A stretch of DNA of 50,703 nt, taken from a candidate division WWE3 bacterium. Its GTDB lineage: Bacteria > Patescibacteriota > WWE3 > UBA101185 > UBA10185. The translations under genes and the position numbers were made by a program. Shown here piece by piece: positions 5,553 through 25,937 of this stretch. The stretch spans positions 1-50,703 of the forward strand of contig JAAZNV010000005.1 in the NCBI GenBank assembly GCA_012798115.1. The letters run 5' to 3'. Position 1 is the stretch's first letter. Every line of letters begins with the position of its first letter. The notes beneath the pieces are model-generated. The model searched no databases and was not told the DNA's origin. It was given only the letters and a program-made list of their open reading frames with translations.

Positions 5553-6914
5553 ATGCCAAAGAAAAAGAAAAATATTTCTAAAAGAGAATCTTCCAAGAAG
5601 AAGGTTAAAAAAGTTATAAAAAAGGTTAAGAAACAAGAAGAAAAGAAAAAGAAGAAAACAACTAAGAAGGTTGTTAAGAAAGTTGCAAGGAAAGAAGAAA
5701 AGAAGAAAAAAGTAAAAGCTAAAGCTTTAAAGAAAGAAAAAGTACCAAGAATAGGAAATAAACCTGCTGTTGAGAAGGTAGTAAATATATTTGAAGATGA
5801 GATTGGTGAATCACCAAAAGAAAAGAAAGAAAAAAGATTAAAAATAGATACTAGAGAACTTGGTATTAAGAAACTTGTCAAAAAAGGTAAGAAGCAAGGT
5901 TACTTAACGCTTGATGACATTTTGGTTTTGTTTCCTAATGCGGAAGATGATTTAGAAACCTTAGACTTCCTTTATGAAAAGCTTCTTGAAGCTGGGATAG
6001 ATGTATTTGATATGGAGTCTGAAAAAGAAGCTGAGAAGCTTGCTAAGCTTGAAGAAATAGATTTAACAAAGATTAAACTTGATAAGACAACTACATCAGA
6101 TCCAGTAAGGATGTATTTAAAAGAGATAGGTAGCTATAACTTATTAACAAAAGAAGAAGAAGTTGAACTTGCAAAAAGAGTTGAGAAGAATGATGAAGAA
6201 GCTAAAACAAAGCTTGCTAGAGCTAATCTTAGACTTGTTGTTTCTATTGCTAAGAAATACATGGGGAGAGGCCTTCAGTTTTTGGATTTAATTCAAGAAG
6301 GAAATATTGGTTTGATGAGAGCTGTTGATAAGTTTGACTGGAAAAGAGGTTTTAAGTTTTCAACTTATGCTACTTGGTGGATAAGACAAGCAATAACAAG
6401 AGCAATTGCAGATCAAGCTAAAACTATTAGAATTCCAGTTCATATGGTTGAAACAATAAACAAATACAAGAAGATTGAAAGACAACTTGAACAAAAATTA
6501 GAAAGGACCCCAACTCCAGAGGAAGTTGCAAAAATTATGGGCATAGAACCTGAAAAAGCTCATGAAATTGTTAAAATATCCCAGAATACTACGTCATTAG
6601 AAACTCCTGTAGGTAAGGAAGAAGATACAAGATTAAAAGAGTTTATTGAGGATGAAGCAACTTTATCTCCATTTGAATCTGCAAGTAGAGAGTTGTTGAA
6701 AGATCATATTGGAGATGTTCTTCACACTTTAAATGCTAGGGAAAAAAGAGTGTTGGAATTAAGATTTGGCTTAAAAGATGGAAGAACAAGAACTCTTGAA
6801 GAAGTAGGTAAGGAATTTGGAGTTACTAGGGAAAGAATTAGACAAATAGAAGCTAAAGCTCTAAGAAAATTAAGACATCCATCAAGAAGCAAAAGACTAA
6901 GAGATTATCTTTGA
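5553..6914 (+). CDS. rpoD: RNA polymerase sigma-70 factor RpoD
   Basis: A 453-residue primary sigma factor. Residues 1 to about 75 are an extreme lysine-rich tail, followed by a short region 1.1-like segment ([20 protein letters not shown]). Region 1.2 ([13 protein letters not shown]), region 2 with the -10 recognition helix ([17 protein letters not shown]), region 3 and region 4.2 ([19 protein letters not shown]) are intact. This predicts recognition of standard TTGACA/TATAAT promoters, which are indeed seen in the window. It lies 41 nt after dnaG, and mpg begins 10 nt after its stop, so the three are likely one operon. Confidence 0.97.
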
Positions 6915-11462: not shown

Positions 11463-11498
11463 GGAAAATAAACCAGCGTTTTGAATAGGTAACGCTGG
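11463..11498 (-). terminator. Terminator of the small lipoprotein gene
   Basis: On the minus strand CCAGCGTT pairs with AACGCTGG (11491-11498 with 11473-11480) and is followed by TTATTTT. Confidence 0.7.
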
Positions 11499-11524
11499 AG
11501 ACCTTTGTAAAGATTGGGTACTTT

Positions 11525-11821
11525 CTAGTCCCTACGTGAGGATGAACTCCCACTCCCACCAAGAATAATACCTGCTCCAAGGACAAAACCAAAGTCATAC
11601 CAGTTCCCATTGTTGTGTACATCGTAAACACTTACATCATCTGTAAACAAAGAAATAAAGAACGTTATTGGAGAAATTATTCCGTGCCACAAGCCTGACC
11701 AAAATCCAGCAACTTTGCCGTTTTCATCAGCAGTTTTGACGTAAGGATTAGGCCCTGGAACGCAGGAAACCAGAAGAAACATTAGTCCAATAAGAATAAT
11801 GAACAAAAACTTTTTATTCAT
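11525..11821 (-). CDS. Small lipoprotein
   Basis: A 98-residue protein with a lipoprotein signal: basic MNKK start, hydrophobic stretch and the lipobox LVSC, giving a predicted lipidated Cys20. The mature part has GFWSGLWHGIISPITFFISL, a membrane-associating amphipathic segment, a YDVHNNGNWYDFGFVLG patch and a Gly/Ser-rich tail. Function unknown; I recall similar sequences in unrelated bacteria as uncharacterised lipoproteins. It has its own promoter (11856-11883) and terminator, so it is monocistronic. Confidence 0.75.
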   Translation of the reverse strand: MNKKFLFIILIGLMFLLVSCVPGPNPYVKTADENGKVAGFWSGLWHGIISPITFFISLFTDDVSVYDVHNNGNWYDFGFVLGAGIILGGSGSSSSRRD

Positions 11822-11855
11822 TTTGACTCACCTTTCTTGTTCTTTTGTTGAGTGG

Positions 11856-11883
11856 ATTATATTATGAAATAACTACGGCGCAA
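11856..11883 (-). promoter_or_regulatory. Promoter of the lipoprotein gene
   Basis: On the minus strand TTGCGC (11878-11883) is followed after 16 nt by TATAAT (11856-11861). A GTAGTT block lies inside the spacer at 11871-11876. The leader carries AAAGGTGAG before the ATG. Confidence 0.5.
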
Positions 11884-11940
11884 CCAACTAAGCGGAATAA
11901 AAATTAAGTTTCTTGTTGAGTAAATAATGGTCGGAGAAGT

Positions 11941-11975
11941 AAAAAGAGGTTTAATCAAAGGGTTAAACCTCTTTT
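11941..11975 (-). terminator. Terminator of the 199-residue cassette gene
   Basis: AAAAGAGGTTTAA and TTAAACCTCTTTT form a 13-bp stem with T residues on the minus-strand side. Confidence 0.8.
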
Positions 11976-11991
11976 GAGGAGTTGCTTAATA

Positions 11992-12591
11992 TCAGATAAA
12001 CTTGGGATACATAGTCTTGATGGCAACACTCAATAGCAACGCTTGAGCATCGTCGAAATTTGCCCTGAACTCTTTCCCCACTAAATCTTTAGGTCTTTCC
12101 ACCTCAAAGTATTTCATTACAAGAGTAAAAGCTTCTTCCTTTAAGAAAGCTGTGCTTATTGTCAACGGTGTCATATACCCTTTTGGATGGCTTTCTACCC
12201 TTATCGCCCAATAGTTTTCTTCCCGATCAAGCAAAAGATGTCTTACGTTTGGCTTAATGCGTATAATCTTCCATACATAAGGATTATACTTTTTCTCCCT
12301 TTCTCGGTAAGTGGATATTTTTAAGCCTCTTTCTTTTGGATAGTGGGATCGAAGGAAGTTTTCCAAAACTTTTTTTACATCAAATTCGAAGTAGTCTACA
12401 TCAAAAGTATGGTTTCCTTTAAAATCCCGTAGATTCTTTACCCCAAGACTTTTCATCAAAAGTTCCAAGGTTCTAGGATTTATGAGTAATGAGCCACCAG
12501 AACCAGCTCCATCTCCACTAATATGCAACCAAACTACGTAGTTTGGTTTCATTCGCTTTACAAAGTGGATCTTAGCTTTCACATTTTCCAT
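11992..12591 (-). CDS. Cassette gene: unknown protein with internal duplication
   Basis: A 199-residue soluble protein I do not recognise. It consists of two similar halves: residues about 17-86 and 127-197 share the pattern NY...(14)...L.I...(L/F)..L.MK...V....D..G..F, and both end in YPK. It has a full set of private signals: TTGATC/TAGAAT promoter with a CTTGTAGTG block, a GGAGAGG Shine-Dalgarno and a strong terminator. Its promoter faces that of the 341-residue gene across a 234-nt gap. Function cannot be inferred; the duplicated module suggests a two-lobed binding protein. Confidence 0.7.
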   Translation of the reverse strand: MENVKAKIHFVKRMKPNYVVWLHISGDGAGSGGSLLINPRTLELLMKSLGVKNLRDFKGNHTFDVDYFEFDVKKVLENFLRSHYPKERGLKISTYREREKKYNPYVWKIIRIKPNVRHLLLDREENYWAIRVESHPKGYMTPLTISTAFLKEEAFTLVMKYFEVERPKDLVGKEFRANFDDAQALLLSVAIKTMYPKFI

Positions 12592-12621
12592 ATTTACCTC
12601 TCCTTTATTTGACTTTGGAGG

Positions 12622-12660
12622 ATTCTACCATACAAAACTTGTACGATCAAACACTACAAG
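12622..12660 (-). promoter_or_regulatory. Promoter with CTTGTAGTG block
   Basis: On the minus strand CTTGTAGTG (12652-12660) leads directly into TTGATC (12645-12650), then 17 nt, then TAGAAT (12622-12627). The GAACTTCATATGAA dyad at 12679-12692 is 18 nt further upstream. Confidence 0.65.
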
Positions 12661-12678
12661 TTATGAGCCCATTATATA

Positions 12679-12693
12679 GAACTTCATATGAAG
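12679..12693. promoter_or_regulatory. Palindromic operator candidate between divergent genes
   Basis: ACTTCATATGAAGT is a perfect 14-bp palindrome (12681-12694 region), embedded in GAACTTCATATGAA. It lies 18 nt from the CTTGTAGTG block of the left gene and about 17 nt from CTGGTAGAAG-TTGACT of the right gene, so one site may serve both promoters. Confidence 0.5.
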
Positions 12694-12710
12694 TATTGTG
12701 GGAGCCAATA

Positions 12711-12825
12711 CTGGTAGAAGTTGACTAAAATATGTATGTATAATACACTACAGGGTGTAAGTAACAGCTACTTACAAACTAGCAAAATGCTGGTTTATTG
12801 ACAATTACAGAACGTAGGAGGAGAA
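12711..12825 (+). promoter_or_regulatory. Promoter and structured leader of the 341-residue gene
   Basis: CTGGTAGAAG is followed by TTGACT (12721-12726). TATAAT stands at 12739-12744, only 12 nt away; TACACT at 12744-12749 has the canonical 17-nt spacing. An inverted CACTACAGG block (12746-12754) overlaps the predicted start of transcription. The leader then folds into two adjacent hairpins, TGTAAGTA/TACTTACA (12755-12776) and AAACTAGCA/TGCTGGTTT (12776-12797), before a GGAGGAG Shine-Dalgarno. This arrangement suggests control at the RNA or operator level. Confidence 0.5.
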
Positions 12826-13851
12826 ATGGGAACGGATTCGTTGTATAACCAAAAGCTTATAAAAGCATACCCTTTTGTATCTGATATCTTATCAGAGCAG
12901 ATGGAGCCGTATAATGGGCAGGATGACGGTCGTCTAGATAACCTCTTAATCATCCGTGTGCAGAAAGCAGATGCAGACCTTATGTTTAAGCGGGCTCATA
13001 ATTTAGGACTTGGAAATAGTGATTCGTGTGCTTTTTCTACTATTCGCCAACACGAAATGCATATTGGGAAACGTGGGGAATACATGTTTGCTATTGATAA
13101 TTCGGAAAAAATTATTAACCGTGTTGACTGGCCAAGAGATCGTGAGGAACAAAGGAAGGCAGACCAGCTTTGTGTCTATGCCAGCGATATTTTCTGGTCC
13201 CAAAGGCATGAGCGTATTTACTCAGGCTCAATTATTGAGAAGGTAAAATACCTCGTTTGGGTAACTGTTGAAGCTTGGTATACAGATAATAAGTATACGG
13301 ATGACAAGTATACAGGCAACGAGAGGGGTTATAGGAGCAGATTTGGAGAGTTACTTAGTACCTCAATCCGCATCACAATTTATCAAGAGCCTGAGCAAGG
13401 GTTTGAAAAACTACTAAAGGAGTCAAATTTGTATGAAAGCCTTGTACTTGATACTCGGTTACTCCAGCGTGGCTTAATGATGAGGGATGTTGATATTATT
13501 ACAATGAGAGGCATGTTGGGAGAAATGTGTATTACATTTCAAGATGAGGTGTACTTCAATGGGATGAAGGAGATGCGTGAGAAAGTTGAGTTTCGTAGTG
13601 CATCGGGGAAGTTCGGTGCCGTCCGAGTTCTTTGTGCCGAAATGTGTGGGTGTGACTTTGTCACGTTGAGGGACGTTGATAGCCAAATTACCTTTCGAGT
13701 CTACTCAGATTTCACGCACATGCATGTAGTTGGGCAGACGGGGACACTCCCTCAAATCCGTAATCTTGTTAAAACAGTTGTACGGATGTGGAATCAAAAC
13801 ACTGAAGCAAGAAATGCGTTCAAAACAAATGAGGATCTCTATGTTGTGTAA
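12826..13851 (+). CDS. Cassette gene: unknown 341-residue protein
   Basis: A 341-residue soluble protein with no family I can name. It contains many Arg, Met and charged residues, a three-times repeated YTD-x-K segment near residues 152-166 (15-nt DNA repeats at 13279-13320) and several Cys (C-A-E-M-C-G-C near 270-276). Codon use differs from the core genes: arginine is often CGT, CGC or CGG, where dnaG, rpoD and ftsH use AGA or AGG almost only. It has a private promoter, a hairpin-bearing leader, an AGGAGGAG Shine-Dalgarno 3 nt before the ATG, and its own terminator. It may be imported or selected for high expression. Confidence 0.7.
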   Translation: MGTDSLYNQKLIKAYPFVSDILSEQMEPYNGQDDGRLDNLLIIRVQKADADLMFKRAHNLGLGNSDSCAFSTIRQHEMHIGKRGEYMFAIDNSEKIINRVDWPRDREEQRKADQLCVYASDIFWSQRHERIYSGSIIEKVKYLVWVTVEAWYTDNKYTDDKYTGNERGYRSRFGELLSTSIRITIYQEPEQGFEKLLKESNLYESLVLDTRLLQRGLMMRDVDIITMRGMLGEMCITFQDEVYFNGMKEMREKVEFRSASGKFGAVRVLCAEMCGCDFVTLRDVDSQITFRVYSDFTHMHVVGQTGTLPQIRNLVKTVVRMWNQNTEARNAFKTNEDLYVV

Positions 13852-13872
13852 ATAAATAGACACTCAACCTAA

Positions 13873-13911
13873 AAGGTGTGCGTGAAGCAATTCATTCACA
13901 CCTTATTTTTG
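13873..13911 (+). terminator. Terminator of the 341-residue gene
   Basis: AAGGTGTG (13873-13880) pairs with CACACCTT (13897-13904), followed by ATTTTTG. Confidence 0.8.
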
Positions 13912-13992
13912 TATTTAAAAGCAAAGGAAGGAGACTGTATTATGAGGATATGTTAAATTAGTACCCTTTAGCTAGTTGTCTATTTAGCATAG

Positions 13993-14011
13993 AACCTTTA
14001 TACGAAAGGTT
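13993..14011. promoter_or_regulatory. Isolated dyad resembling the cassette upstream element
   Basis: AACCTTT and AAAGGTT form perfect 7-bp arms around ATACG; read with flanks it is GAACCTTTATACGAA, close to the elements at 12679, 15876 and 17720. No cassette gene follows it at present, so it may mark a lost or degraded unit. Confidence 0.35.
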
Positions 14012-14037
14012 GTAGATGTGACTAATAAAAGAGTGTT

Positions 14038-14910
14038 TTATCCCAACTTAATCATTAAGGTTCCTAAAGACATTACTATTGCTGCAATCCAGCTGTATCT
14101 TGTTGGTTTGTCCCTGAGGAATAAGTAGCTAAAAATTAAAACAAAGAATATTTGCAATCTTTTTATTCCCAAAACTAGTGCAATAGGCCCACCTGTAAAA
14201 GCAGAGAAAACAAGTAGAGTGGATATGCCATAGGTAAGACCATTTGCAAGTAAAATAACAAAGTTATCTTTGAATTCTTTAAACCACTTTTTATGTTCTT
14301 TTTTAAATAAGTATGCAGTTAAGATGACAATCATAATCATATCTTCAACTAACAGGGTAAATGCTGCGTTTATTGGTTGGGTATTGTTTATTCCTATCTT
14401 ATCGAAAATTGCAGTAAGGGCATTTAGCATTATGGCAAAAAGGAAAAGAAGATAAGATTTGTTGGTAAATAAGAGCTTAAGGGGTTTTAAGAGATCTTCC
14501 TTGGCTTGATCTGCATTTAAGATATAAGAACCTATGATTGTGAGGAATAAACCAATTACAGGGACAAGTCTCAAAGACTCTGACAAAAATAGTAGACCGA
14601 AGATATAAGTAAAAAATCCGTTAAAAGCTGCTAATGGGAAAACTTTAGATACCGAATTGTTCTTTATGGTTTCGTTAGATATGGTTTTTGAAAAAATAAA
14701 TGTTAACGAAGAAGCAACTACTCCAAGGAAAAACATTTGGTTTAAAGAAGGCAATCCATTTTTTATTGCAAAGTAAGCAATCAAAGGAAGAGATAAAGTA
14801 AAAAGCGACCAGGTTAGCACAGTTGCACTTACTTTATTTAAAACCTTTTTATTTAAAGTTATCTCTACTGCGCCTGTAATAGCTGAACAAAATGCTAACC
14901 AAAACCACAT
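14038..14910 (-). CDS. EamA/DMT-superfamily transporter
   Basis: A 290-residue membrane protein with ten predicted helices in two five-helix halves, the layout of the drug/metabolite transporter superfamily. The second half shows the typical RLQIFFVLIFSYLFLRDKP and the end SLGTLMIKLG. The substrate is unknown; relatives export metabolites or amino acids. TTACAC, 16 nt, TATAAT on the minus strand (14917-14944) with only 6 nt to the ATG predicts a leaderless mRNA. It stands alone between accessory genes but uses core-like codons. Confidence 0.88.
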   Translation of the reverse strand: MWFWLAFCSAITGAVEITLNKKVLNKVSATVLTWSLFTLSLPLIAYFAIKNGLPSLNQMFFLGVVASSLTFIFSKTISNETIKNNSVSKVFPLAAFNGFFTYIFGLLFLSESLRLVPVIGLFLTIIGSYILNADQAKEDLLKPLKLLFTNKSYLLFLFAIMLNALTAIFDKIGINNTQPINAAFTLLVEDMIMIVILTAYLFKKEHKKWFKEFKDNFVILLANGLTYGISTLLVFSAFTGGPIALVLGIKRLQIFFVLIFSYLFLRDKPTRYSWIAAIVMSLGTLMIKLG

Positions 14911-14916
14911 GGGGTA

Positions 14917-14944
14917 ATTATAACAAGAGAGCTTCTTTGTGTAA
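14917..14944 (-). promoter_or_regulatory. Leaderless promoter of the DMT transporter gene
   Basis: TTACAC (14939-14944), 16 nt, TATAAT (14917-14922), then 6 nt to the ATG at 14910. Confidence 0.6.
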
Positions 14945-15040
14945 TAAAGGTAGTTTTATTGAATGATTAAGTGGCTGTTTTCTCTATTACTTTATGTTTA
15001 AAAGTTATATTGTTCTAACCAATTTAGGAATAAAGTTTTG

Positions 15041-15339
15041 TCATCTTAAGTTGTAACTCTTAAAACGCAGCCCTCTACCATCAAAGAGTGTCCTATATAC
15101 CTAGTAGTGTCTGCAATCTGCTAAATATTCTTCATTCTTGCTTGGGTTGAAATCCATTAGTGGAATGTGTTCAGTCTTTCCTTTGTTTAATCAACTTTAG
15201 AGAGGAATCCTATTTGGTATAGTTCTGGAATCTCTCTTTCTAGCTTTTCAATAAAGTCTCTTCTAAGAATATCATCTCTATAAAACCAATAGGGATTTCT
15301 CCCACTCTCAATATGTTGTAATGATTTATATTGATATGG
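15041..15339 (-). pseudogene. Decayed gene of unknown family
   Basis: In the 604-nt gap between two genes, the minus strand retains protein-like sequence in two frames. The upstream part (15187-15339) reads SGRNPYWFYRDDILRRDFIE and ends SKVD-stop, with no start codon. A frameshift then leads to EHIPLMDFNPSKNEEYLADC (15109-15192), an in-frame TAG, and a tail ending GLRFKSYNLR-stop at 15041. Composition and spacing are those of a real protein broken by a frameshift and a nonsense mutation. The rest of the gap (14945-15040, 15340-15400) shows nothing I can assign. Confidence 0.55.
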
Positions 15340-15400
15340 CTAAAAGTTGATTTTGTTATTCGTTTATTGGAGGTAAGTGTGCTGTTCTCATGAGGAGGTT

Positions 15401-15478
15401 ATGCATTACCTTTATTTGTGTTCAAGATTTGCCTCATTAGGAACTTTATACGAGGAATTAGTGGCGTTTGGAAAATAA
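15401..15478 (+). CDS. Possible small ORF (25 residues)
   Basis: ATG at 15401 is preceded by GAGGAGG with only 2 nt spacing, and the frame reads MHYLYLCSRF...LYEELVAFGK before TAA. It ends against the hairpin at 15475-15508, which has T residues on both sides and could end this transcript too. A near-palindrome GGTTATGCATTACC covers the start. It could be a real peptide or the remnant of a larger gene; evidence is thin. Confidence 0.3.
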   Translation: MHYLYLCSRFASLGTLYEELVAFGK

Positions 15479-15508
15479 AAAACCAGGCTTTTTGTAGAGT
15501 CTGGTTTT
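15475..15508 (-). terminator. Terminator of the 88-residue gene
   Basis: AAAACCAG and CTGGTTTT form the stem (15479-15486, 15501-15508), with a T-run on the minus-strand side. It may also work on the plus strand. Confidence 0.75.
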
Positions 15509-15514
15509 GTTTGT

Positions 15515-15781
15515 TCATTTATAAAGCTTATCTGTATCTGTAGCTTCTTTTACTGCGAAATTAGCATCTTCCCCTAATTCTTTGAGTAATTCCAACAATC
15601 TGAGTGTTCTCCTTGCATTTTCACGTAGAAGATTCTCACGTGTGTCCACGTCTGTTATAGTTGATGTTGTTAAGAGTGCTTGGCCATATCTTATGGTTTT
15701 TGCTAATTCTGTTTTCAGGTTTTTTACCCTAAAATTTCTCTTAATTTCTTTAAACGAGTTTTTAATTGTTTTCCGACACAT
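15515..15781 (-). CDS. Cassette gene: small helical protein, unknown
   Basis: An 88-residue, basic N-terminal, predicted all-helical protein. The second half is rich in Arg, Leu and Glu (ENARRTLRLLELLKELGED), which fits a helical bundle or a nucleic-acid-associated protein. It has the cassette signals: a TTGCTG/TATAAT promoter with CCTGTAGTG, an AAGGAGAG Shine-Dalgarno 2 nt before the ATG and its own terminator. It diverges from the 170-residue gene; a GAACTTTATGCGAA element lies between them. Confidence 0.55.
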   Translation of the reverse strand: MCRKTIKNSFKEIKRNFRVKNLKTELAKTIRYGQALLTTSTITDVDTRENLLRENARRTLRLLELLKELGEDANFAVKEATDTDKLYK

Positions 15782-15819
15782 AGCTCTCCTTGTCTTTTGT
15801 ATCTTGAATATTAACTTGG

Positions 15820-15858
15820 ATTATATATTAAAATACTTTAACCAGCAACCACTACAGG
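15820..15858 (-). promoter_or_regulatory. Promoter with CCTGTAGTG block
   Basis: On the minus strand CCTGTAGTG (15850-15858), then TTGCTG (15843-15848), 17 nt, TATAAT (15820-15825). Confidence 0.65.
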
Positions 15859-15875
15859 GTATTAACTCTCGATGT

Positions 15876-15889
15876 GAACTTTATGCGAA
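15876..15889 (-). promoter_or_regulatory. Upstream element GAACTTTATGCGAA
   Basis: Lies 17 nt upstream of the CCTGTAGTG block at 15850-15858, the same spacing (17-18 nt) as at 12679 and 17720. It sits between two divergent genes. Confidence 0.5.
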
Positions 15890-15948
15890 CTGCAGTATAT
15901 GTTTTCTTGGTATACTTTAAAAGTAATTGTTTCTATTAAGGAGGTTTT

Positions 15949-16461
15949 ATGGATAAACTAGAAAAAGATAATTTATCACTCAAAGAAAAATTAGAATCTA
16001 GCATGACACAAGAGCAGGTAGAAATTTTCCATCAAAAAATAGAAAAGTTGGGAGGAGAACTCCATGATATTTGGAGAGAATCTAGAAAAAAAGAAGATGG
16101 TACTTTTGAACCTCGTGTAAAAGCTACAAAAGATAATGAGTGGATTAATTCTCATGGAACTAACCAGGTTGACATTGCAAATACTAGCTTTGAGAGTTTG
16201 CCAAACGACTGGCAAGTAGAAAACAGGGCATCAGCCGAAGTTGCAGTCTCTTTGATATATGAGGCGAAGATTAATAAGAAAGCAATAGATAGTGCTTTTG
16301 TTGAAGAAGCTAGTTCTGTTGTACATGATAAGTGGCTTGAGAGAAACTCTAGTTGGGCACCTGCTGAGCAAAAAGTAAGTTATTCAGAACTGCCGGAAGC
16401 CGAAAAGGAAAAAGATAGGGCTATTATTAGAAAAGGGGTAGATGTAGTTAAGCAAGATTGA
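15949..16461 (+). CDS. Cassette gene: RyR-domain-like protein
   Basis: A 170-residue cytoplasmic protein. Residues 1-45 form a charged helix. The middle reads EPRVKATKDNEWI and VDIANTSFESLPNDWQVEN. The C-terminal part (VHDKWLERN...YSELPEAEKEKDR) resembles the RyR repeat, whose consensus is HE.W...(10-15)...Y..LPE..K.KDR; in other proteins RyR repeats occur in ligand-binding or defence-related contexts. The assignment rests on this pattern only. AAGGAGG stands 5 nt before the ATG and TATACT about 35 nt before it. A weak hairpin (AAGACA/TGTCTT at 16481-16496) follows. Confidence 0.6.
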   Translation: MDKLEKDNLSLKEKLESSMTQEQVEIFHQKIEKLGGELHDIWRESRKKEDGTFEPRVKATKDNEWINSHGTNQVDIANTSFESLPNDWQVENRASAEVAVSLIYEAKINKKAIDSAFVEEASSVVHDKWLERNSSWAPAEQKVSYSELPEAEKEKDRAIIRKGVDVVKQD

Positions 16462-16524
16462 TTCTTGTTAATGACACAAAAAGACATTATTGTCTTCTCA
16501 TACAAAGGGAAGGTAATGAAGGGA

Positions 16525-16573
16525 TAAAAAACACCGTAAGGTAGATAATCACTTTTCTACATAATACGGTGTT
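16525..16573 (-). terminator. Terminator of the 197-residue gene
   Basis: ACACCGTA (16531-16538) pairs with TACGGTGT (16565-16572), with an inner GTAGA/TCTAC pairing and a six-T run on the minus strand. Confidence 0.8.
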
Positions 16574-16588
16574 TGTGAAAGCTTAGCA

Positions 16589-17182
16589 CTATGTTAACTG
16601 ATTGCCGTATTTCCAAAATTTTTTTAGAAATGCTACTGCCAAGAGATTTGTGAAACCAGATAGTCCTATGTAATCCAACTCTTGTTCTAACTTATCTTGG
16701 ATATCAGCAGGTTTGCTACCTTTACGTATTTCTTGCTGCATGGCAACTGCCCAGCCTTGAATGAATTTAATAATCTCTTTTGATAGGTTGTCCTTTCGTT
16801 GGGCCCAACATGTTCTTAGATACGGAATGAGTTTATACCAAGGAACTTCCATCTTTTCTGTAGAAAGAAGTTGGTAAACCCGTTGTTTTTTAGCTTTGCA
16901 TTCCGCATGGTATTTTGCACACTCCTGTTTCCACAATGCTTTTCGAAAAGGGGTGCAACTTTGTTTAAGAGCATATTTCCACTGACGTAAAGCCTCTTTC
17001 TTGGTCATTTCTGGAGAAACAATAATTTGAATACCATTGAATAAACAAGTTATTCTTGTTCCCGATAACTTAGAACGATTAACCATCTCACTCAAGACAC
17101 AATCAATATGTTCACCTGCATGAGGTCGGTAGCATACAAAACTATTTACACGCTTTTTCCAGTTGTTTGACAAACTATACAT
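16589..17182 (-). CDS. Cassette gene: unknown Lys/Trp-rich protein
   Basis: A 197-residue soluble, basic protein that I do not recognise. The middle (residues about 75-135) is rich in Lys, Cys and Trp; the C-terminal 60 residues look helical with a short hydrophobic patch (GLSGFTNLLAVAFLKKF). It has cassette signals: TTGACG, 17 nt, TATAAT preceded by CCTGTAGTG, a GGAGAGGAG Shine-Dalgarno and a strong private terminator. Arginine and cysteine codons (CGT, TGC) depart from core use. Confidence 0.65.
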   Translation of the reverse strand: MYSLSNNWKKRVNSFVCYRPHAGEHIDCVLSEMVNRSKLSGTRITCLFNGIQIIVSPEMTKKEALRQWKYALKQSCTPFRKALWKQECAKYHAECKAKKQRVYQLLSTEKMEVPWYKLIPYLRTCWAQRKDNLSKEIIKFIQGWAVAMQQEIRKGSKPADIQDKLEQELDYIGLSGFTNLLAVAFLKKFWKYGNQLT

Positions 17183-17227
17183 TAATATTCTCCTCTCCTT
17201 TTATTGTTTTATTTAGGTTAGTTTAAG

Positions 17228-17266
17228 ATTATACCTTGAATACATTCTTGCGTCAAACACTACAGG
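17228..17266 (-). promoter_or_regulatory. Promoter with CCTGTAGTG block
   Basis: On the minus strand CCTGTAGTG (17258-17266), one nt, TTGACG (17251-17256), 17 nt, TATAAT (17228-17233). Confidence 0.7.
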
Positions 17267-17295
17267 GTTTGCAAGGTTAGTGAGTGTTTAAGGGA

Positions 17296-17331
17296 ATAAA
17301 AAAGAACCTCTTGAAATTATCTTTGAGGTTC
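17296..17331 (-). terminator. Terminator of the 102-residue gene
   Basis: GAACCTC (17304-17310) pairs with GAGGTTC (17325-17331), with seven T on the minus strand. The stem includes the last codons of the gene. Confidence 0.75.
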
Positions 17332-17625
17332 AGTTAGTTCCACTGCAGTGATATCTAATAACCTGTTAATAATCGTTAGGAAATCACGCCAACGGCAATT
17401 CCAATTGTAAGGACTAGATATAATAAATTGTGAAGCTAGCCCACCTGCTTTAGTTGTCTCCTCGTTTGGGTATGTTCCACAATCATTTAACTCAGCCATC
17501 TTGGCCCGTACTTTATCAGCAACCTCATTTCTTACGTTTAGTATCATTTCAAACTTTAGGTGGCTGATTTCAATTTTAGCCACAGTAACGTTTGCCTTTT
17601 TCCATTCAAACGTTTGATTTGCCAC
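17317..17625 (-). CDS. Cassette gene: unknown 102-residue protein
   Basis: A small soluble protein of unknown family with mixed beta/alpha character. The N-terminal part alternates hydrophobic and charged residues (WKKANVTVAKIEISHLKFEM), followed by a helical RNEVADKVRAKMAELND. It has a TTGATT/TATTCT promoter preceded by CCTATAGC, an AAGGAGGGG Shine-Dalgarno about 3 nt before the start region, and a terminator overlapping its end. It is in line with the 197-residue gene but separated from it by a terminator, so the two are independent transcripts. Confidence 0.6.
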   Translation of the reverse strand: MANQTFEWKKANVTVAKIEISHLKFEMILNVRNEVADKVRAKMAELNDCGTYPNEETTKAGGLASQFIISSPYNWNCRWRDFLTIINRLLDITAVELTEPQR

Positions 17626-17664
17626 AACCCCTCCTTATTTGGATTTTCTAGAATTCTAACACTT

Positions 17665-17701
17665 AGAATATCATAAGTGCCCTAATCAATCAAGCTATAG
17701 G
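17665..17701 (-). promoter_or_regulatory. Promoter with CCTATAGC block
   Basis: On the minus strand CCTATAGC (17694-17701) directly precedes TTGATT (17688-17693), then 17 nt and TATTCT (17665-17670). Confidence 0.55.
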
Positions 17702-17719
17702 ATATTGTCTCTCATTGCA

Positions 17720-17733
17720 GAATTTCATGCGAA
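17720..17733 (-). promoter_or_regulatory. Upstream element GAATTTCATGCGAA
   Basis: Lies 18 nt upstream of the CCTATAGC block. It matches the elements at 12679 and 15876 in sequence and spacing. Confidence 0.45.
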
Positions 17734-17751
17734 GCGTGGCAGGGAATTGTT

Positions 17752-18810
17752 TTATTTCAGAAAGTAGTTGTCGTTCGAGAATTTTACCTGCTCAATAAAG
17801 ATTTTACTGAAGGCCACAGCACTTAGCTGTTCATAAAATAGAATAGTTGCTTTTTTGAACTGATCTATATCTACGTTTCTGTATGATAGTGGTAGTAAGT
17901 CATTTGCAAGAAGTATGGCGTTGCATAGCATTCTGGCAGTTCTCTTGTTTCCATCAGAATAAGGTTGGACATATGGAAACATAACGCTGGCAATAAATGC
18001 CTTAAGATATGGATCCGTTACCTTATTTACCATTTCAACAGTTTTTTCTAAAGCCTCCTTAAGTTGATGCTCGTTGCCTAAGGGTCTGTAGATGGTTCCT
18101 GTTATTCCAACCTCGTGTCTCCTAATTCCAGTTGATATCTCAAGTCCTTTGACCAAGGTGTTATGAAGTTGGTTTATAACTGATATAGAAATCGTTTTGA
18201 AATTTCTTTTGTTTGCTAGAATATTATCAAAGGCATGTTTATGATTTAAGATCATTAGGGTTTCTGCTTTACTTTTACCACTTGCCTCTTTTTGTTCCTT
18301 GATTAAAGACTCTGTTTCTAACAAGGTATATGTATTTCCTTCTATTTTTGATGATTTCCAAGATAGCTCTATGGTAAATCTTTCCAGTTCCCTTCTGATT
18401 AAATCTGGGGAAATACCCTTTGTTTTATCTGAGAAACTTACCGTTGCGTTCTTTAATGGCATTAATATATCCGCTAGTTGAGGATCTGTTAAATATTCAA
18501 AGATTTTACTGTCAAATGTTTTTTTGGCTCCCACTCGTTGATCAGGGTCGTATGAAAAGTAATTTTCTATATCAAAAACTCTCAAAAGAGGATTATGGGA
18601 AATTGGGTAGTACATCGTTGCCTTGGCTTTGCCTTCGGATCTGATTAACTTTAATTTTATTAGTAAGTTAAGATCTCTTATCAGTGTGGGTTTAGAGACG
18701 CTGTATGTTGGGAATAGCTTTTCAGCTATCTTTTCTCTTAAAATTCCGCCTGATTGATTGATGATGTTTGAAATGTAACGTTGGCGTGGTGTAAGAATCG
18801 TATCATTCAT
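17752..18810 (-). CDS. Fic-family protein with N-terminal winged helix
   Basis: A 352-residue protein: an N-terminal winged-helix domain, then a Fic domain. The class II autoinhibitory motif SSKIEGN is at residues 153-159. The active-site loop reads VQPYSDGNKRTAR, with Gln282 in place of the catalytic His of HPFx(D/E)GN(G/K)R. Fic enzymes transfer AMP or other groups to proteins; the His-to-Gln change argues against standard AMPylation. I chose the ATG at 18810, since the possible upstream starts overlap the -35 box (TTGACA 18841-18846). Repeats of ATGATACGATT span the promoter and start, a likely binding site for its own winged helix. Confidence 0.88.
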   Translation of the reverse strand: MNDTILTPRQRYISNIINQSGGILREKIAEKLFPTYSVSKPTLIRDLNLLIKLKLIRSEGKAKATMYYPISHNPLLRVFDIENYFSYDPDQRVGAKKTFDSKIFEYLTDPQLADILMPLKNATVSFSDKTKGISPDLIRRELERFTIELSWKSSKIEGNTYTLLETESLIKEQKEASGKSKAETLMILNHKHAFDNILANKRNFKTISISVINQLHNTLVKGLEISTGIRRHEVGITGTIYRPLGNEHQLKEALEKTVEMVNKVTDPYLKAFIASVMFPYVQPYSDGNKRTARMLCNAILLANDLLPLSYRNVDIDQFKKATILFYEQLSAVAFSKIFIEQVKFSNDNYFLK

Positions 18811-18846
18811 ATATATAAATCGTATCATTTTGAGACGATTTGTCAA
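18805..18846 (-). promoter_or_regulatory. Fic promoter with direct and inverted repeats
   Basis: TTGACA (18841-18846) with TACGAT 16 nt downstream. ATGATACGATT occurs twice in direct orientation across the -10 region and the start codon, and AATCGT/ACGATT forms an inverted pair in the spacer. Autoregulation by the Fic protein winged helix is inferred. Confidence 0.5.
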
Positions 18847-18868
18847 TCCCTACATATGTGGGAGGCAA

Positions 18869-19065
18869 TTATATTTTTATGACCTGGGCATAAGAAACAC
18901 TATTGTAGATGACTTCAGTGAGTTGGAGCTTAGAACTGATCTCGGATGTGTTTGGAGAATTTTTTAATTGTTGAGAGATTAAAGTATAGGGAAAATTCCG
19001 ACATCTTTGCTAACCAATACTTTTGGAGGACCTATGATAAAGGAGAGATTGATTTGGTGGAATAA
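18869..19065 (+). pseudogene. Remnant of a DUF4143-type AAA ATPase
   Basis: The plus strand reads LYFYDLGIRNTIVDDFSELE, then LRTDLGCVW, matching the C-terminal DUF4143 region of the ATPases whose hallmark is (I/L)YFxDxGLRN. After VW the frame is broken by loss of one base (about 18956) and continues as FLIVERLKYRENSDIFANQY and FWRTYDKGEIDLVE-stop, the typical end of these proteins. No start or ATPase domain remains. A cassette-gene terminator lies directly at its end. Confidence 0.75.
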
Positions 19066-19093
19066 AAAGAGTTGAAAATTAATTCAACTCTTT
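19063..19093 (-). terminator. Terminator of the 93-residue gene
   Basis: AAAGAGTTGAA and TTCAACTCTTT form an 11-bp stem with T residues on the minus-strand side. Confidence 0.75.
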
Positions 19094-19111
19094 ATTAAAA
19101 AGTAGTAATAA

Positions 19112-19393
19112 CTAAAGATCATGTTCTTCCTTTGGTACGTGTAGATTTTCGTCCAAAAACTTAATGAGATTCTGAAGAACTACAGTAAAAAAGATTTCCA
19201 GTTTGTAGAAGTAAAAATCAGTGTGCTCGCTATTCTTCTCAATGTAAGGTCCTTGTATAGGAATCTCTTTTAATATTTTTCTTATTTCTTGTTGAACATC
19301 TCCCGAGATTCTATCAGTGACTCTTAGAATCATCATGTCTTTTGTTGGCAGGGACTCAAGACGAGCCTTGGTAGGCCATATATACAGTATCAT
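19112..19393 (-). CDS. Cassette gene: unknown 93-residue protein
   Basis: A small soluble protein beginning MILYIWPTKARLE. The start at 19393 is chosen because it has an AAGGAG Shine-Dalgarno and lies downstream of a perfect promoter; the longer frame to 19450 would run into that promoter. No known domain. The central EIRKILKEIPIQGPYIE and the C-terminal hydrophobic LEIFFTVVLQNLIKFLDENL suggest an alpha/beta fold. Its promoter begins 4 nt after the 3' end of tRNA-Asn. Confidence 0.55.
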   Translation of the reverse strand: MILYIWPTKARLESLPTKDMMILRVTDRISGDVQQEIRKILKEIPIQGPYIEKNSEHTDFYFYKLEIFFTVVLQNLIKFLDENLHVPKEEHDL

Positions 19394-19421
19394 TTCTATC
19401 TCCTTAACTTTGTTTGTTGGA

Positions 19422-19460
19422 ATTATATAGAAACAACAAACTTGTGTCAACTACTACAGG
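19422..19460 (-). promoter_or_regulatory. Consensus promoter with CCTGTAGTA block
   Basis: On the minus strand CCTGTAGTA (19452-19460), TTGACA (19445-19450), 17 nt, TATAAT (19422-19427). Both hexamers match consensus exactly. Confidence 0.8.
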
Positions 19461-19464
19461 ATGT

Positions 19465-19539
19465 TGGCTCCCCCGAGTGGATTCGAACCACTAACCTTGT
19501 CCTTAACAGGGACCTGCTCTACCGTTGAGCTACAGGGGA
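19465..19539 (-). tRNA. tRNA-Asn (GTT)
   Basis: Acceptor TCCCCTG pairs with CGGGGGA; G73 and CCA are encoded. The anticodon loop is CTGTTAA, anticodon GTT. The first pair of the anticodon stem is a G-A mismatch; all other stems are sound. Confidence 0.95.
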
Positions 19540-21630: not shown

Positions 21631-22506
21631 TTACAAGATAGAAAGTTCTGTCTTATCCATCTTTTCTGGTTTTTCAACGTAATCAAGATATTTCTCAGTT
21701 GTTGAAATTCTCTTGTGTCCTGCTACCTTAGCAAGATAAGTAATGTTAACACCATTTCTAATATGATTAGCAACAAAGGTATGTCTTAAATCATTTACCT
21801 TAGCGTTTTCTACACCTGCTAATCTAAAAAATCTGTCAATTGTAGATCTAATGTTTCTAATAAGAAGGGGTCTACCTGATTTTGTAATAAATACGTTAGT
21901 AGATTTATCTGATTTTACTCTAGTGTTATTAATATATTTACTTAATGCCTCAACAGCTGCTTTATTAAGAGGAACTATTCTTTCTTCCCTGTTGTTTTTT
22001 CTAGCAATAAACAATGAACCTGTTTCTCCTTTAATATCTAAATCTTCCAGCTTCATTCCTGCAAGCTCTGAAATAGTAATTCCTGCTTGGAGGAGAACTT
22101 CAATCATTGCGTATGATCTATTATCGTCCTTTGCAGCATCTCTTAATGCTCTATATTCAAGCTTAGTTAAAATTCTTGGAGCTTTTGTTTCAAACTTAGG
22201 GTGCTTTAATTGGTCTGAGATATCTTCTTTTAATATACCTTCTTTGTTTAAATACTTAATAAAAGTTCTAGCAGCATTTGTCTTTCTTGAAATAGACTTT
22301 GGAGTGTAATTTTCATTAGCTAAACTCTTCATAAATGATTCAAGATGTTCTATCTTCATACCTTCAACATCATCTACACCTTCTTTTGCTAAGAAAGTTA
22401 CTATTTGTTCAATATCTTTATTGTAAGCAACAAGAGTTGCTTCTGACTTCCCATCAGCTTTTAATTTTTCTATAAACTTTTTATGAACTGTTTGTAATTT
22501 AGTCAT
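21631..22506 (-). CDS. XerC/XerD-like tyrosine recombinase
   Basis: A 291-residue protein with an N-terminal SAM-like core-binding domain (1-105) and a C-terminal catalytic domain. Tyr273 (TTEKYLDY), His264 (AGHKRIST), Lys170 and Arg241 (LRHTF) are present. Two of the conserved residues differ: the first Arg of TGLRISEL is Thr144 (AGITISEL), and the His of HxLRH is Asn238 (NDLRHTF). It could still be the dif/Xer enzyme of this genome with relaxed chemistry, or a DNA-binding relative. An AAGGGA Shine-Dalgarno precedes the ATG. It is not flanked by att-like repeats, so a chromosomal rather than phage role is likely. Confidence 0.85.
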   Translation of the reverse strand: MTKLQTVHKKFIEKLKADGKSEATLVAYNKDIEQIVTFLAKEGVDDVEGMKIEHLESFMKSLANENYTPKSISRKTNAARTFIKYLNKEGILKEDISDQLKHPKFETKAPRILTKLEYRALRDAAKDDNRSYAMIEVLLQAGITISELAGMKLEDLDIKGETGSLFIARKNNREERIVPLNKAAVEALSKYINNTRVKSDKSTNVFITKSGRPLLIRNIRSTIDRFFRLAGVENAKVNDLRHTFVANHIRNGVNITYLAKVAGHKRISTTEKYLDYVEKPEKMDKTELSIL

Positions 22507-22607
22507 AGTTTCCCTTCAGACAGGAATAATAAATAACCTTTAGTTGTTGCCTATTATAACAAATAGGAGAGCAGAAGTAAATTCTATGGGGTAGAGTATC
22601 AAATGTA

Positions 22608-23348: not shown

Positions 23349-25223
23349 ATGGCTCAACAAAAATCTAAAAGCAATAAAAAACAAGAAATAAAGTTTGAAC
23401 TGCCTAAAAAACTACCAAAGAAGGTGATAATTCAAGTAAAAAAGCAAAGTTTCTTTGGTAGTACTCCATTTTTGTTATTGCTGGGGTTATTAATATACTT
23501 AACTAGCTCACTTGGTAGCTCTTCTTTTCAACAAGAGATTCCTATTGGTGATCTAGTAAAGAAAATAAACGAAGAAAAAATTCAAGATGTTGTTGTAAAT
23601 GGGGACAGAGTAGATGTTCTTCAGAAAGATGGAACAAAAGTGTATGCAAAGAAAGAAAGTGGTATTAGCTTTGATCAAATATTAAGTAACAACAACATAG
23701 ATAGATCAAAAATATCTGGAAAATTAGAAGTAGTGCATAAAGTAAATTTCCTTGATGTATTATCTCCTCTTTTAATGTTTGTACTACCAGTTGTTATCCT
23801 TTTCTTCTTTCTTAAACAAATGAAAGGACAAAGTGGAGAGATAATGTCTTTTGGAAAGTCTAGAGCAAAGGTATTTACTAAAGGGCAACAAAAGGTAACT
23901 TTTAAAGATGTTGCAGGATGTGAAGAAGCCAAAAGAGAAATGATGGAGATTGTGGATTTTCTTAAGTATCCTGCAAAGTATAGAAAACTAGGAGCAAGAA
24001 TTCCAAAAGGAGTTCTATTAGTTGGCCCATCTGGAGTTGGAAAAACTCTTCTTGCTAGAGCAATTGCAGGAGAAGCTGGAGTTCCTTTCTTCAGTGTTGC
24101 AGGAAGTGAGTTTATGGAAATGTTAGTTGGGGTTGGGTCTTCAAGAGTAAGAGATCTATTTAATATGGCAAGAGAAAGACAACCGAGCTTAATATTTATT
24201 GATGAAGTAGATGCTATTGGGAGACAAAGAGGAATGGGGATAGGAGGGGGACATGATGAAAGAGAACAAACGTTAAATCAAATATTGATAGAAATGGATG
24301 GCTTTGATGTTAGAACAAATGTTATTGTTCTTGCTGCTACCAACAGACCAGATATGCTTGACCCAGCTCTTATTAGACCTGGAAGGTTTGATAGAACTAT
24401 TACCATTCCATTACCGGATTTGCAAGATAGAGAAGAGATAATAAAAATACATATGAATGGAAAACCTATTGATGAAAAGGTAAGTGTCGAGAAATTAGCA
24501 AGAAAAACAGTTGGATTTAGTGGTGCAGACTTAGAGAACATGCTAAATGAGGCAGCTATTCTTACTGCAAGAGAAAATAGAGATAAGATCATAGAAAAAG
24601 ATCTAGAAGAAGCTTCGTTGAAGGTAACAATTGGATCAGAAAGAAGAACACTTCAAACAGATGAAGAAAAGAAAATGACTGCTTACCATGAGTCAGGGCA
24701 TGCTCTTGTTGCTGCAAGTGTCAAAGAATCAGATCCGGTCCAGAGAGTTTCTATCGTTGCAAGAGGGCAAACACTTGGACACACAGATGTCCCTCCAGAG
24801 AGAGATAGGTATCAACTCACTCAAACAAGGATTACATCTTTAATAACCACTATGTTGGGTGGAAGGGCTGCTGAAGAAATAGTATTTAATGAGTTCACAG
24901 CTGGAGCGTCAAATGATATCAAAAGAGCTACAGAGTTAGCTAGAAAAATGGTTACCGAATATGGTATGAGTTCCTTGGGTCCAATTAATTATGAAGCAAA
25001 AAGTGATTTTTCATGGCTTGCCAAAGAATTTGGAGAATCTTCACAAATTAGTGATGAGATGTCATCTAAAATAGATTCTGAAATAGAAAAGATAATAGGC
25101 TCTTGCTACAAAGAAGCTAAAGTGATTTTAACTGAAAAAAGAAGTACTTTAGACAAGGTTTCTACTAAACTCTTGGAAAAGGAAACACTTGACGGGGACG
25201 AATTCAAGGAGTTAATTAACTAA
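23349..25223 (+). CDS. ftsH: ATP-dependent zinc metalloprotease FtsH
   Basis: A 624-residue membrane AAA+ protease for quality control of membrane and regulatory proteins. Two membrane segments (about 38-56 and 136-156) flank a short external domain. Walker A is GPSGVGKT (about 226-233; usually GPPGTGKT), Walker B LIFIDEVDAIG, the second region of homology RPDMLDPALIRPGRFD, and the zinc site HESGH (HExxH) with the later metal ligand in the C-terminal domain. TATACT (23334-23339) is 9 nt before the ATG. Arginine codons are AGA/AGG almost throughout. It follows two Met tRNAs. Confidence 0.97.
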   Translation: MAQQKSKSNKKQEIKFELPKKLPKKVIIQVKKQSFFGSTPFLLLLGLLIYLTSSLGSSSFQQEIPIGDLVKKINEEKIQDVVVNGDRVDVLQKDGTKVYAKKESGISFDQILSNNNIDRSKISGKLEVVHKVNFLDVLSPLLMFVLPVVILFFFLKQMKGQSGEIMSFGKSRAKVFTKGQQKVTFKDVAGCEEAKREMMEIVDFLKYPAKYRKLGARIPKGVLLVGPSGVGKTLLARAIAGEAGVPFFSVAGSEFMEMLVGVGSSRVRDLFNMARERQPSLIFIDEVDAIGRQRGMGIGGGHDEREQTLNQILIEMDGFDVRTNVIVLAATNRPDMLDPALIRPGRFDRTITIPLPDLQDREEIIKIHMNGKPIDEKVSVEKLARKTVGFSGADLENMLNEAAILTARENRDKIIEKDLEEASLKVTIGSERRTLQTDEEKKMTAYHESGHALVAASVKESDPVQRVSIVARGQTLGHTDVPPERDRYQLTQTRITSLITTMLGGRAAEEIVFNEFTAGASNDIKRATELARKMVTEYGMSSLGPINYEAKSDFSWLAKEFGESSQISDEMSSKIDSEIEKIIGSCYKEAKVILTEKRSTLDKVSTKLLEKETLDGDEFKELIN

Positions 25224-25520: not shown

Positions 25521-25534
25521 CTCTTCTCCCATAT

Positions 25535-25571
25535 CTTATAGTTTGACATATAAATTAATATTTACTATAAT
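25535..25571 (+). promoter_or_regulatory. Consensus promoter with CTTATAGT block
   Basis: CTTATAGT directly precedes TTGACA (25543-25548); 17 nt later comes TATAAT (25566-25571). Both hexamers are perfect, and the block matches the accessory-cassette signature. Confidence 0.8.
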
Positions 25572-25601: not shown

Positions 25602-25937
25602 ATGCATGTAAATGTATTGACTGTTTCTTCCAAGGGTAAAACACGGGTCAGAAAAATTTGGAAGGATGATAAAACAAAAAAGTTCTCATTTGGTAGAATT
25701 TTTACTGACCCAAAAGGTTTGTGCTTGGAAGTCAAAAAACCTTTCCTTCAGCAGTTTTTTTGTTTTTTCAGAAAGATCCTCGGCCTTGGATGTATTCGTA
25801 TTGAAATGAATCGTAAAGCTGTAAAGCCAGGGAAGAAAGTAATTCTGGAGCCAGGCGAAAACCGCTTGGTGTATAAAATCGTCAAATCAGGAAATACTAT
25901 TGTTAAAGAAAGAAATGTTATTAACGTTACGTTTTGA
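25602..25937 (+). CDS. Cassette gene: unknown basic protein
   Basis: A 111-residue, lysine-rich, predicted beta-strand protein (RIEMNRKAVKPGKKVILEPG, ENRLVYKIVKSGNTIVKE). A central FLQQFFCFFRKILG patch could associate with membrane. No known domain. It is a complete transcription unit: consensus promoter, AAAGGAGAG Shine-Dalgarno, own terminator. Separate from its neighbours ftsH and tatD. Confidence 0.65.
   Translation: MHVNVLTVSSKGKTRVRKIWKDDKTKKFSFGRIFTDPKGLCLEVKKPFLQQFFCFFRKILGLGCIRIEMNRKAVKPGKKVILEPGENRLVYKIVKSGNTIVKERNVINVTF

What the first reader, a model, noticed from the sequence alone, without database searches (positions are those of the whole stretch)
11463..19460. Family of stand-alone gene cassettes with a shared promoter signature
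Genes at 11992, 12826, 15515, 16589, 17317 and 19112, plus distant ones at 25602 and 39786, are unrelated in protein sequence but built alike: own promoter, own AAGGAGAG-type Shine-Dalgarno and own terminator. Directly before the -35 box most carry a block YYTRTAGYR followed by TTGAY: CCTGTAGTG/TTGACG (17251), CCTGTAGTA/TTGACA (19445), CTTGTAGTG/TTGATC (12645), CCTGTAGTG/TTGCTG (15843), CCTATAGC/TTGATT (17688), CTTATAGT/TTGACA (25543), CCTTGTAGTA (40301). Neighbouring core genes lack the block. This suggests one regulator, or one expression context, for scattered orphan genes: a regulon or a mobile cassette system not described to my knowledge.
Basis: partly seen in the sequence, partly recalled or inferred. 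Interest (0 to 1): 0.75.

Follow-up and report, generated by a model that had tools for sequence, protein, structure and literature searches.

The report
Undescribed promoter box on lineage-specific genes
In the uncultured bacterial group WWE3 (Katanobacteria) and its relatives, a short DNA word of about nine letters sits just in front of one class of strong promoters and marks mostly lineage-specific small genes plus a shared cell-surface gene, which points to an undescribed control circuit in a group whose gene regulation is almost unstudied.

Summary
The block is real and family-wide. The window is one contig of a ~761 kb WWE3/Katanobacteria genome. Refined motif: R-N-C-Y-Y-R-T-A-G, 1-3 nt before a TTGAC -35 box, N17, TATAAT. 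In three genomes 27 promoters carry it at that distance; shuffling predicts about 0.1. Across 27 family genomes there are 65 hits against 2 for the reversed pattern. A purine two bases before the CC, never specified in the search, is present in 108/109 CPR sites and 11/19 chance hits. The association with lineage-specific genes holds: 1/14 block genes has a homologue in the sampled part of a same-genus genome, against 66/159 matched genes (p=0.01). Two reader claims fail: core genes also carry the block (a Xer recombinase in the window; the LPXTG surface-protein/sortase operon in 22/26 WWE3 genomes), and no mobile-element signature was found. The own genome has one sigma70 protein (the window's RpoD), so an alternative sigma is unlikely. 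Most likely it is the site of an unidentified activator. Unexpectedly, block promoters share chromosomal slots between species while the genes behind them are usually unrelated (p=2e-4). No prior description was found. All evidence is computational; there are no expression data.

The parts
12622..12662 (-). Block promoter AACTTGTAG-TGT-TTGATC-N17-TAGAAT of gene 11992-12591 (199 aa, no family match)
   Evidence: no Pfam family
15820..15860 (-). Block promoter ACCCTGTAG-TGG-TTGCTG-N17-TATAAT of gene 15515-15781 (88 aa); weak -35
17228..17268 (-). Block promoter ACCCTGTAG-TGT-TTGACG-N17-TATAAT of gene 16589-17182 (197 aa, C-terminal Tad4-like domain)
17665..17703 (-). Block promoter ATCCTATAG-C-TTGATT-N17-TATTCT of gene 17317-17625 (102 aa)
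   Evidence: sequence read directly
19422..19462 (-). Block promoter ATCCTGTAG-TAG-TTGACA-N17-TATAAT of gene 19112-19393 (93 aa), directly behind tRNA-Asn
25533..25571 (+). Block promoter ATCTTATAG-T-TTGACA-N17-TATAAT of gene 25602-25937 (111 aa); the same slot in G003 holds an unrelated 134-aa gene with its own block
22553..22592 (-). Block promoter ACCCCATAG-AA-TTTACT-N17-TATAAT of a core gene, Xer-family recombinase 21631-22506; block conserved in G003
12746..12754 (-). Isolated CCTGTAGTG, inverted relative to gene 12826, not placed at a -35; role unknown
5553..6914 (+). RpoD, the only protein with Sigma70 region 4 found in the genome
19465..19539 (-). tRNA-Asn at the right edge of the variable island

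Best explanation
The block RNCYYRTAG, lying about -47 to -38 and abutting the -35 box of otherwise ordinary sigma70 promoters, is the binding site of one DNA-binding regulator, most likely an activator that sits next to sigma region 4 and RNA polymerase (class II geometry). It defines a regulon in WWE3/Katanobacteria and related candidate phyla (Microgenomates groups, Dojkabacteria). The regulon contains a conserved part (LPXTG surface protein plus sortase, a glucosaminidase-like protein, a Xer recombinase) and a larger, fast-turning part of small lineage-specific genes and lipoproteins. Shown computationally: the element, its spacing, its phylogenetic spread, its conservation upstream of orthologues, its association with lineage-specific genes and the single sigma70 protein. 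Inferred: that a protein other than RNA polymerase reads it, that it activates rather than represses, and that the genes are co-expressed.
For: Bimodal block scores in own promoters and enrichment over shuffles in three genomes; 65 against 2 reversed-control hits in the family and 52 against 2 for the CCC form; an unselected purine at -2 in 108/109 CPR sites against 11/19 chance hits; TAG-to-TTGAC distance only 1-3 nt; block conserved upstream of surface-protein orthologues in 22/26 WWE3 genomes and in two other families of the class; lineage-specific genes: 1/14 with a G003 homologue against 66/159 matched (p=0.01); one sigma70 protein; no block found upstream of 16S rRNA in 19 genomes, as expected if the box is not a general strength element.
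Against: No regulator identified. No expression data. The association with lineage-specific genes is not significant against RAAC2 after length matching. In most of the 19 genomes no consensus promoter of any kind was found upstream of 16S, so that test is weak. The conserved 49-aa RHH protein near the surface locus is missing from block-rich genomes.
Confidence: 0.55

Rival explanations
1. A lineage-specific extension of the -35 region read by RNA polymerase itself (alpha C-terminal domain or sigma region 4), which simply makes promoters strong; genes that came in alone carry stand-alone strong promoters and so show it more.
For: The position equals the proximal UP-element site; -35 and -10 boxes at block promoters are near consensus; the alpha C-terminal domain is present in 40 of 43 relatives; infA carries the block in one relative (L308).
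Against: The word is GC-bearing and all-or-none, not a graded A-tract; the alpha C-terminal domain keeps the usual DNA-contact residues (R, N, G, K, S; read against E. coli numbering from memory), so ordinary A-tract binding is expected; own core promoters with good boxes (infA, hrcA, rpmF, serS, pheS) lack it; not seen at 16S.
Confidence: 0.25
2. The block is a repressor operator abutting -35: a regulator shuts off strong promoters of accessory and surface genes until a signal arrives.
For: Near-consensus promoters beside the block need no activator; an RHH (CopG/Arc-like) gene, a class that often represses, sits directly ahead of a block promoter in several genomes; CTATAG is a palindromic core.
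Against: The RHH protein is missing from block-rich genomes (for example G020, G021); the strict position upstream of -35 with only 1-3 nt freedom is not required for a repressor; block promoters with poor -35 boxes exist (TTGCTG, TTGATT, TTTACT).
Confidence: 0.12
3. A mobile gene-cassette system: the block is part of a moving unit or of its target site.
For: In slots between conserved neighbours every counted G003 block slot (4 of 4) also has a block in the own genome; two of these pairs plus the 25602 slot hold genes with no detectable similarity, one pair in opposite orientation; two own blocks lie directly behind a tRNA gene; the tRNA-Asn island differs between species.
Against: No shared repeat or inverted repeat around the genes; no conservation beyond the promoter; the block is also fixed on core genes with unbroken synteny; only 4 hits in 2.9 million viral contigs.
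Confidence: 0.06
4. Chance resemblance picked out by eye.
Against: All control comparisons.
Confidence: 0.01

Closest known systems
Class II activator-dependent sigma70 promoters (general bacterial promoter anatomy, own knowledge)
   Same: A discrete site directly upstream of and abutting -35, with normal -35/-10 boxes
   Different: No regulator known; non-palindromic single word of 9 nt; found at a large share of lineage-specific genes in several candidate phyla
UP element bound by the RNA polymerase alpha C-terminal domain (own knowledge)
   Same: Same position, about -47 to -38
   Different: Not an A-tract, all-or-none, not seen upstream of 16S rRNA
Alternative-sigma regulons
   Same: A promoter class shared by scattered genes
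   Different: Only one sigma70 protein found in the own genome; -35 and -10 are the housekeeping ones
Integron gene cassettes and other gene-cassette islands
   Same: Small orphan genes in variable slots, some next to a tRNA
   Different: Each gene has its own promoter; no attC-like inverted repeats or flanking repeats found

Membership tests
Sigma70 (group 1) promoters | TTGACA-like -35, 17 nt spacer, TATAAT-like -10 | tested here: met
Activator-type regulon (class II geometry) | Discrete site at a fixed place abutting -35 | tested here: met
Activator-type regulon (class II geometry) | Site conserved upstream of orthologues across species | tested here: met
   surface protein, glucosaminidase-like and Xer genes
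Activator-type regulon (class II geometry) | A regulator that binds the site | tested here: inconclusive
   RHH candidate tested and not universal; none other identified
Activator-type regulon (class II geometry) | Members respond together in expression | not testable with these tools
   no transcriptome available
Alternative sigma factor regulon | A second sigma factor gene | tested here: not met
   one Sigma70_r4 protein in the own genome; sigma54 not tested
UP element | A-tract sequence upstream of -35 | tested here: not met
   logo is RNCYYRTAG
UP element | Present at strong constitutive promoters such as rRNA | tested here: inconclusive
   no block in 19 16S upstream regions, but few consensus promoters were found there at all
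Integron or cassette system | attC-like inverted repeats or shared flanking repeats | tested here: not met
   logo flanks
Integron or cassette system | Different genes at the same slots in related genomes | tested here: met
   two counted slots plus the 25602 slot; in the 214057 slot a shared leader RNA suggests diverged rather than swapped genes

The most novel reading that the evidence does not exclude
Fixed expression slots: a conserved, specifically marked promoter stays at the same chromosomal place over species time while the small gene behind it is replaced or diverges beyond recognition, so that a single regulator always finds a fresh set of orphan genes under its control. The regulon would be defined by the promoter slot, not by the genes.
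Probability: 0.2. Interest if true: 0.78.

Novelty: new variant of a known kind. Interest (0 to 1): 0.62.

Why it matters
Almost nothing is known about transcription control in the candidate phyla radiation. This gives a precise, testable promoter element shared by several candidate phyla, links an LPXTG surface-protein/sortase operon to many lineage-specific genes, and offers a handle to predict which unknown genes act together. It also raises the question of how newly arising or acquired genes come under an existing regulator.

Tried and rejected
Alternative sigma factor: only RpoD found. Loss of the alpha C-terminal domain: it is present and typical. rRNA promoters as carriers of the block: none seen. 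Conserved RHH protein as universal reader: too patchy. Recombination or cassette repeats: none. Viral carriage of the element: 4 hits in viral contigs. Secretion as the common theme: N-terminal hydrophobic segments are only mildly more common than background (43 of 95 CPR block genes against 264 of 797 RAAC2 genes), and not enriched in the own genome. Literature searches for a promoter motif or regulon in WWE3, Microgenomates or the CPR gave nothing relevant; one query failed on syntax. A Rfam call was over the size limit and was repeated smaller.

Full report
Setting. The window is contig C12 of a genome held as G000, 760,854 bases in 14 contigs. The window holds rpoD (5553-6914), ftsH (23349-25223) and, between the rpoD/TspO side and tRNA-Asn (19465-19539), an island of genes without counterparts in the sampled sister genomes.

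Observation. Gene 12826 has only an isolated inverted copy of the word, and 39786 has no usable -35. With genes called on 440 kb of the own genome, 36 intergenic promoters with at most one mismatch per box split into two clean groups: 11 with the block, 25 without, and nothing in between; none of 24 genic look-alikes has it. Across the family, CYTRTAGTR-N(0-1)-TTGAC occurs 65 times against 2 for the pattern read backwards; elsewhere in the class 10 against 1; elsewhere in the phylum sample 18 against 15 (sums mine).

Refinement. Orthologous promoters of a WWE3 surface protein showed a CCCATAG form, which is also strongly enriched (52 against 2). The distance from TAG to TTGAC is 1, 2 or 3 nt. 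A purine two bases before the CC, never part of the first searches, is present in 108 of 109 CPR sites but only 11 of 19 hits in unrelated bacteria. This is independent support that the CPR sites are functional and that the others are chance. In a scan of 84,980 genomes, 58 of the 80 hits with titles are WWE3, Microgenomates groups (Woese-, Gottesman-, Levy-, Ames-, Pace-, Curtiss-, Woyke-, Roizmanbacteria), Dojkabacteria or 'Patescibacteria group' (count mine).

Which genes. Conserved targets: an LPKTG-anchored DUF11-type surface protein found in 26 of 27 WWE3 genomes, with the block in 22 of the 26, followed in the own genome by a sortase; a glucosaminidase-like protein; a Xer recombinase inside the window. 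The rest are small proteins without family matches, lipoproteins and membrane proteins. In the own genome 1 of 14 block genes has a homologue in about 515 kb of the same-genus genome G003, against 356 of 568 other genes (p=3e-5), 140 of 278 genes with at least 60 nt of upstream intergenic sequence (p=0.0016), and 66 of 159 such genes of similar length (p=0.010). Against RAAC2 the same contrast is 2 of 13 against 141 of 283 (p=0.02) and is not significant after length matching. The two C6 genes were left out of the G003 test because the matching G003 contig was not fetched; the surface protein there does have a G003 homologue.

Slots. Of 283 intervals between neighbouring conserved genes shared by the own genome and G003, 4 have a block in both, 6 in the own genome only and none in G003 only (p=8e-7; p=2e-4 when restricted to the 74 intervals that contain extra genes). 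One of the four is the glucosaminidase gene. One keeps a leader RNA word (GCCTGCGRTTTCCATTGGCGGATGGA) in both species although the proteins do not align. The other two, and the 25602 slot seen by eye, hold proteins with no more similarity than shuffled sequences. At C13:7259 the block lies within about 2 nt of the same distance from a shared upstream word, so the promoter itself looks orthologous (my count).

Mechanism. The genome has one Sigma70 region-4 protein, RpoD, and a typical alpha C-terminal domain. A discrete word of fixed position, with 1-3 nt of freedom, directly against -35 and absent from most other promoters is what a class II activator site looks like. I put the activator reading at 0.55, an element read by RNA polymerase at 0.25, a repressor operator at 0.12 and a mobile cassette at 0.06. 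The regulator is unknown. A conserved RHH protein beside the surface locus was tested and is missing from block-rich genomes.

Limits. Gene calls come from a simple script; the numbers of genes are small; G003 and the own genome were sampled in stretches; there are no expression data; the absence of a prior description rests on open-access full-text searches only.

Noticed in passing
16589-17182 (-): The C-terminal third of this block gene matches Tad4, a type I Thoeris inhibitor (PF25186, E=1e-10), and phrog_9822; a possible anti-defence or phage-derived gene in a WWE3 genome.
   Followed up: partly
11525-11821 (-): Small protein with a strong match to a phage family of unknown function (phrog_30702, E=9e-24).
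   Followed up: no
17752-18810 (-): Fic/DOC family protein in the variable island.
   Followed up: no
12746-12754 (-): Isolated CCTGTAGTG just upstream of gene 12826, inverted and not at a -35; unexplained.
   Followed up: partly
G000:C13:214057-214330 (L010/L215) and G003:C3:226000-226250 (L396): Block promoter followed by a leader of about 200 nt with a 26-nt word conserved in both species, ahead of unrelated-looking 191-194 aa proteins; may be a small RNA or a leader RNA. No Rfam match for the own copy.
   Followed up: partly
L362:469-618 (G000:C6): 49-aa ribbon-helix-helix-like protein, found with strong scores in 16 of 27 WWE3 genomes, in several of them directly ahead of a block promoter near the surface-protein/sortase locus.
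   Followed up: yes
L362:7693-9064 (G000:C6): WWE3-wide LPKTG surface protein (DUF11-like) followed by a sortase: a sortase-anchored surface protein in a candidate-phyla bacterium.
   Followed up: partly
G012:C1:93559-96564, G030:C41:1588-4016, G031:C8:35130-37482: 16S rRNA matches spanning 2.4-3.0 kb instead of 1.5 kb, suggesting large insertions (introns) in 16S.
   Followed up: no
L068, L085, L086, L091, L092 just after the -10 box: Several family block promoters are followed at once by a short 5' hairpin in the transcript (for example AAAGGTTTAGTAACCTTT), perhaps stabilising the mRNA.
   Followed up: no
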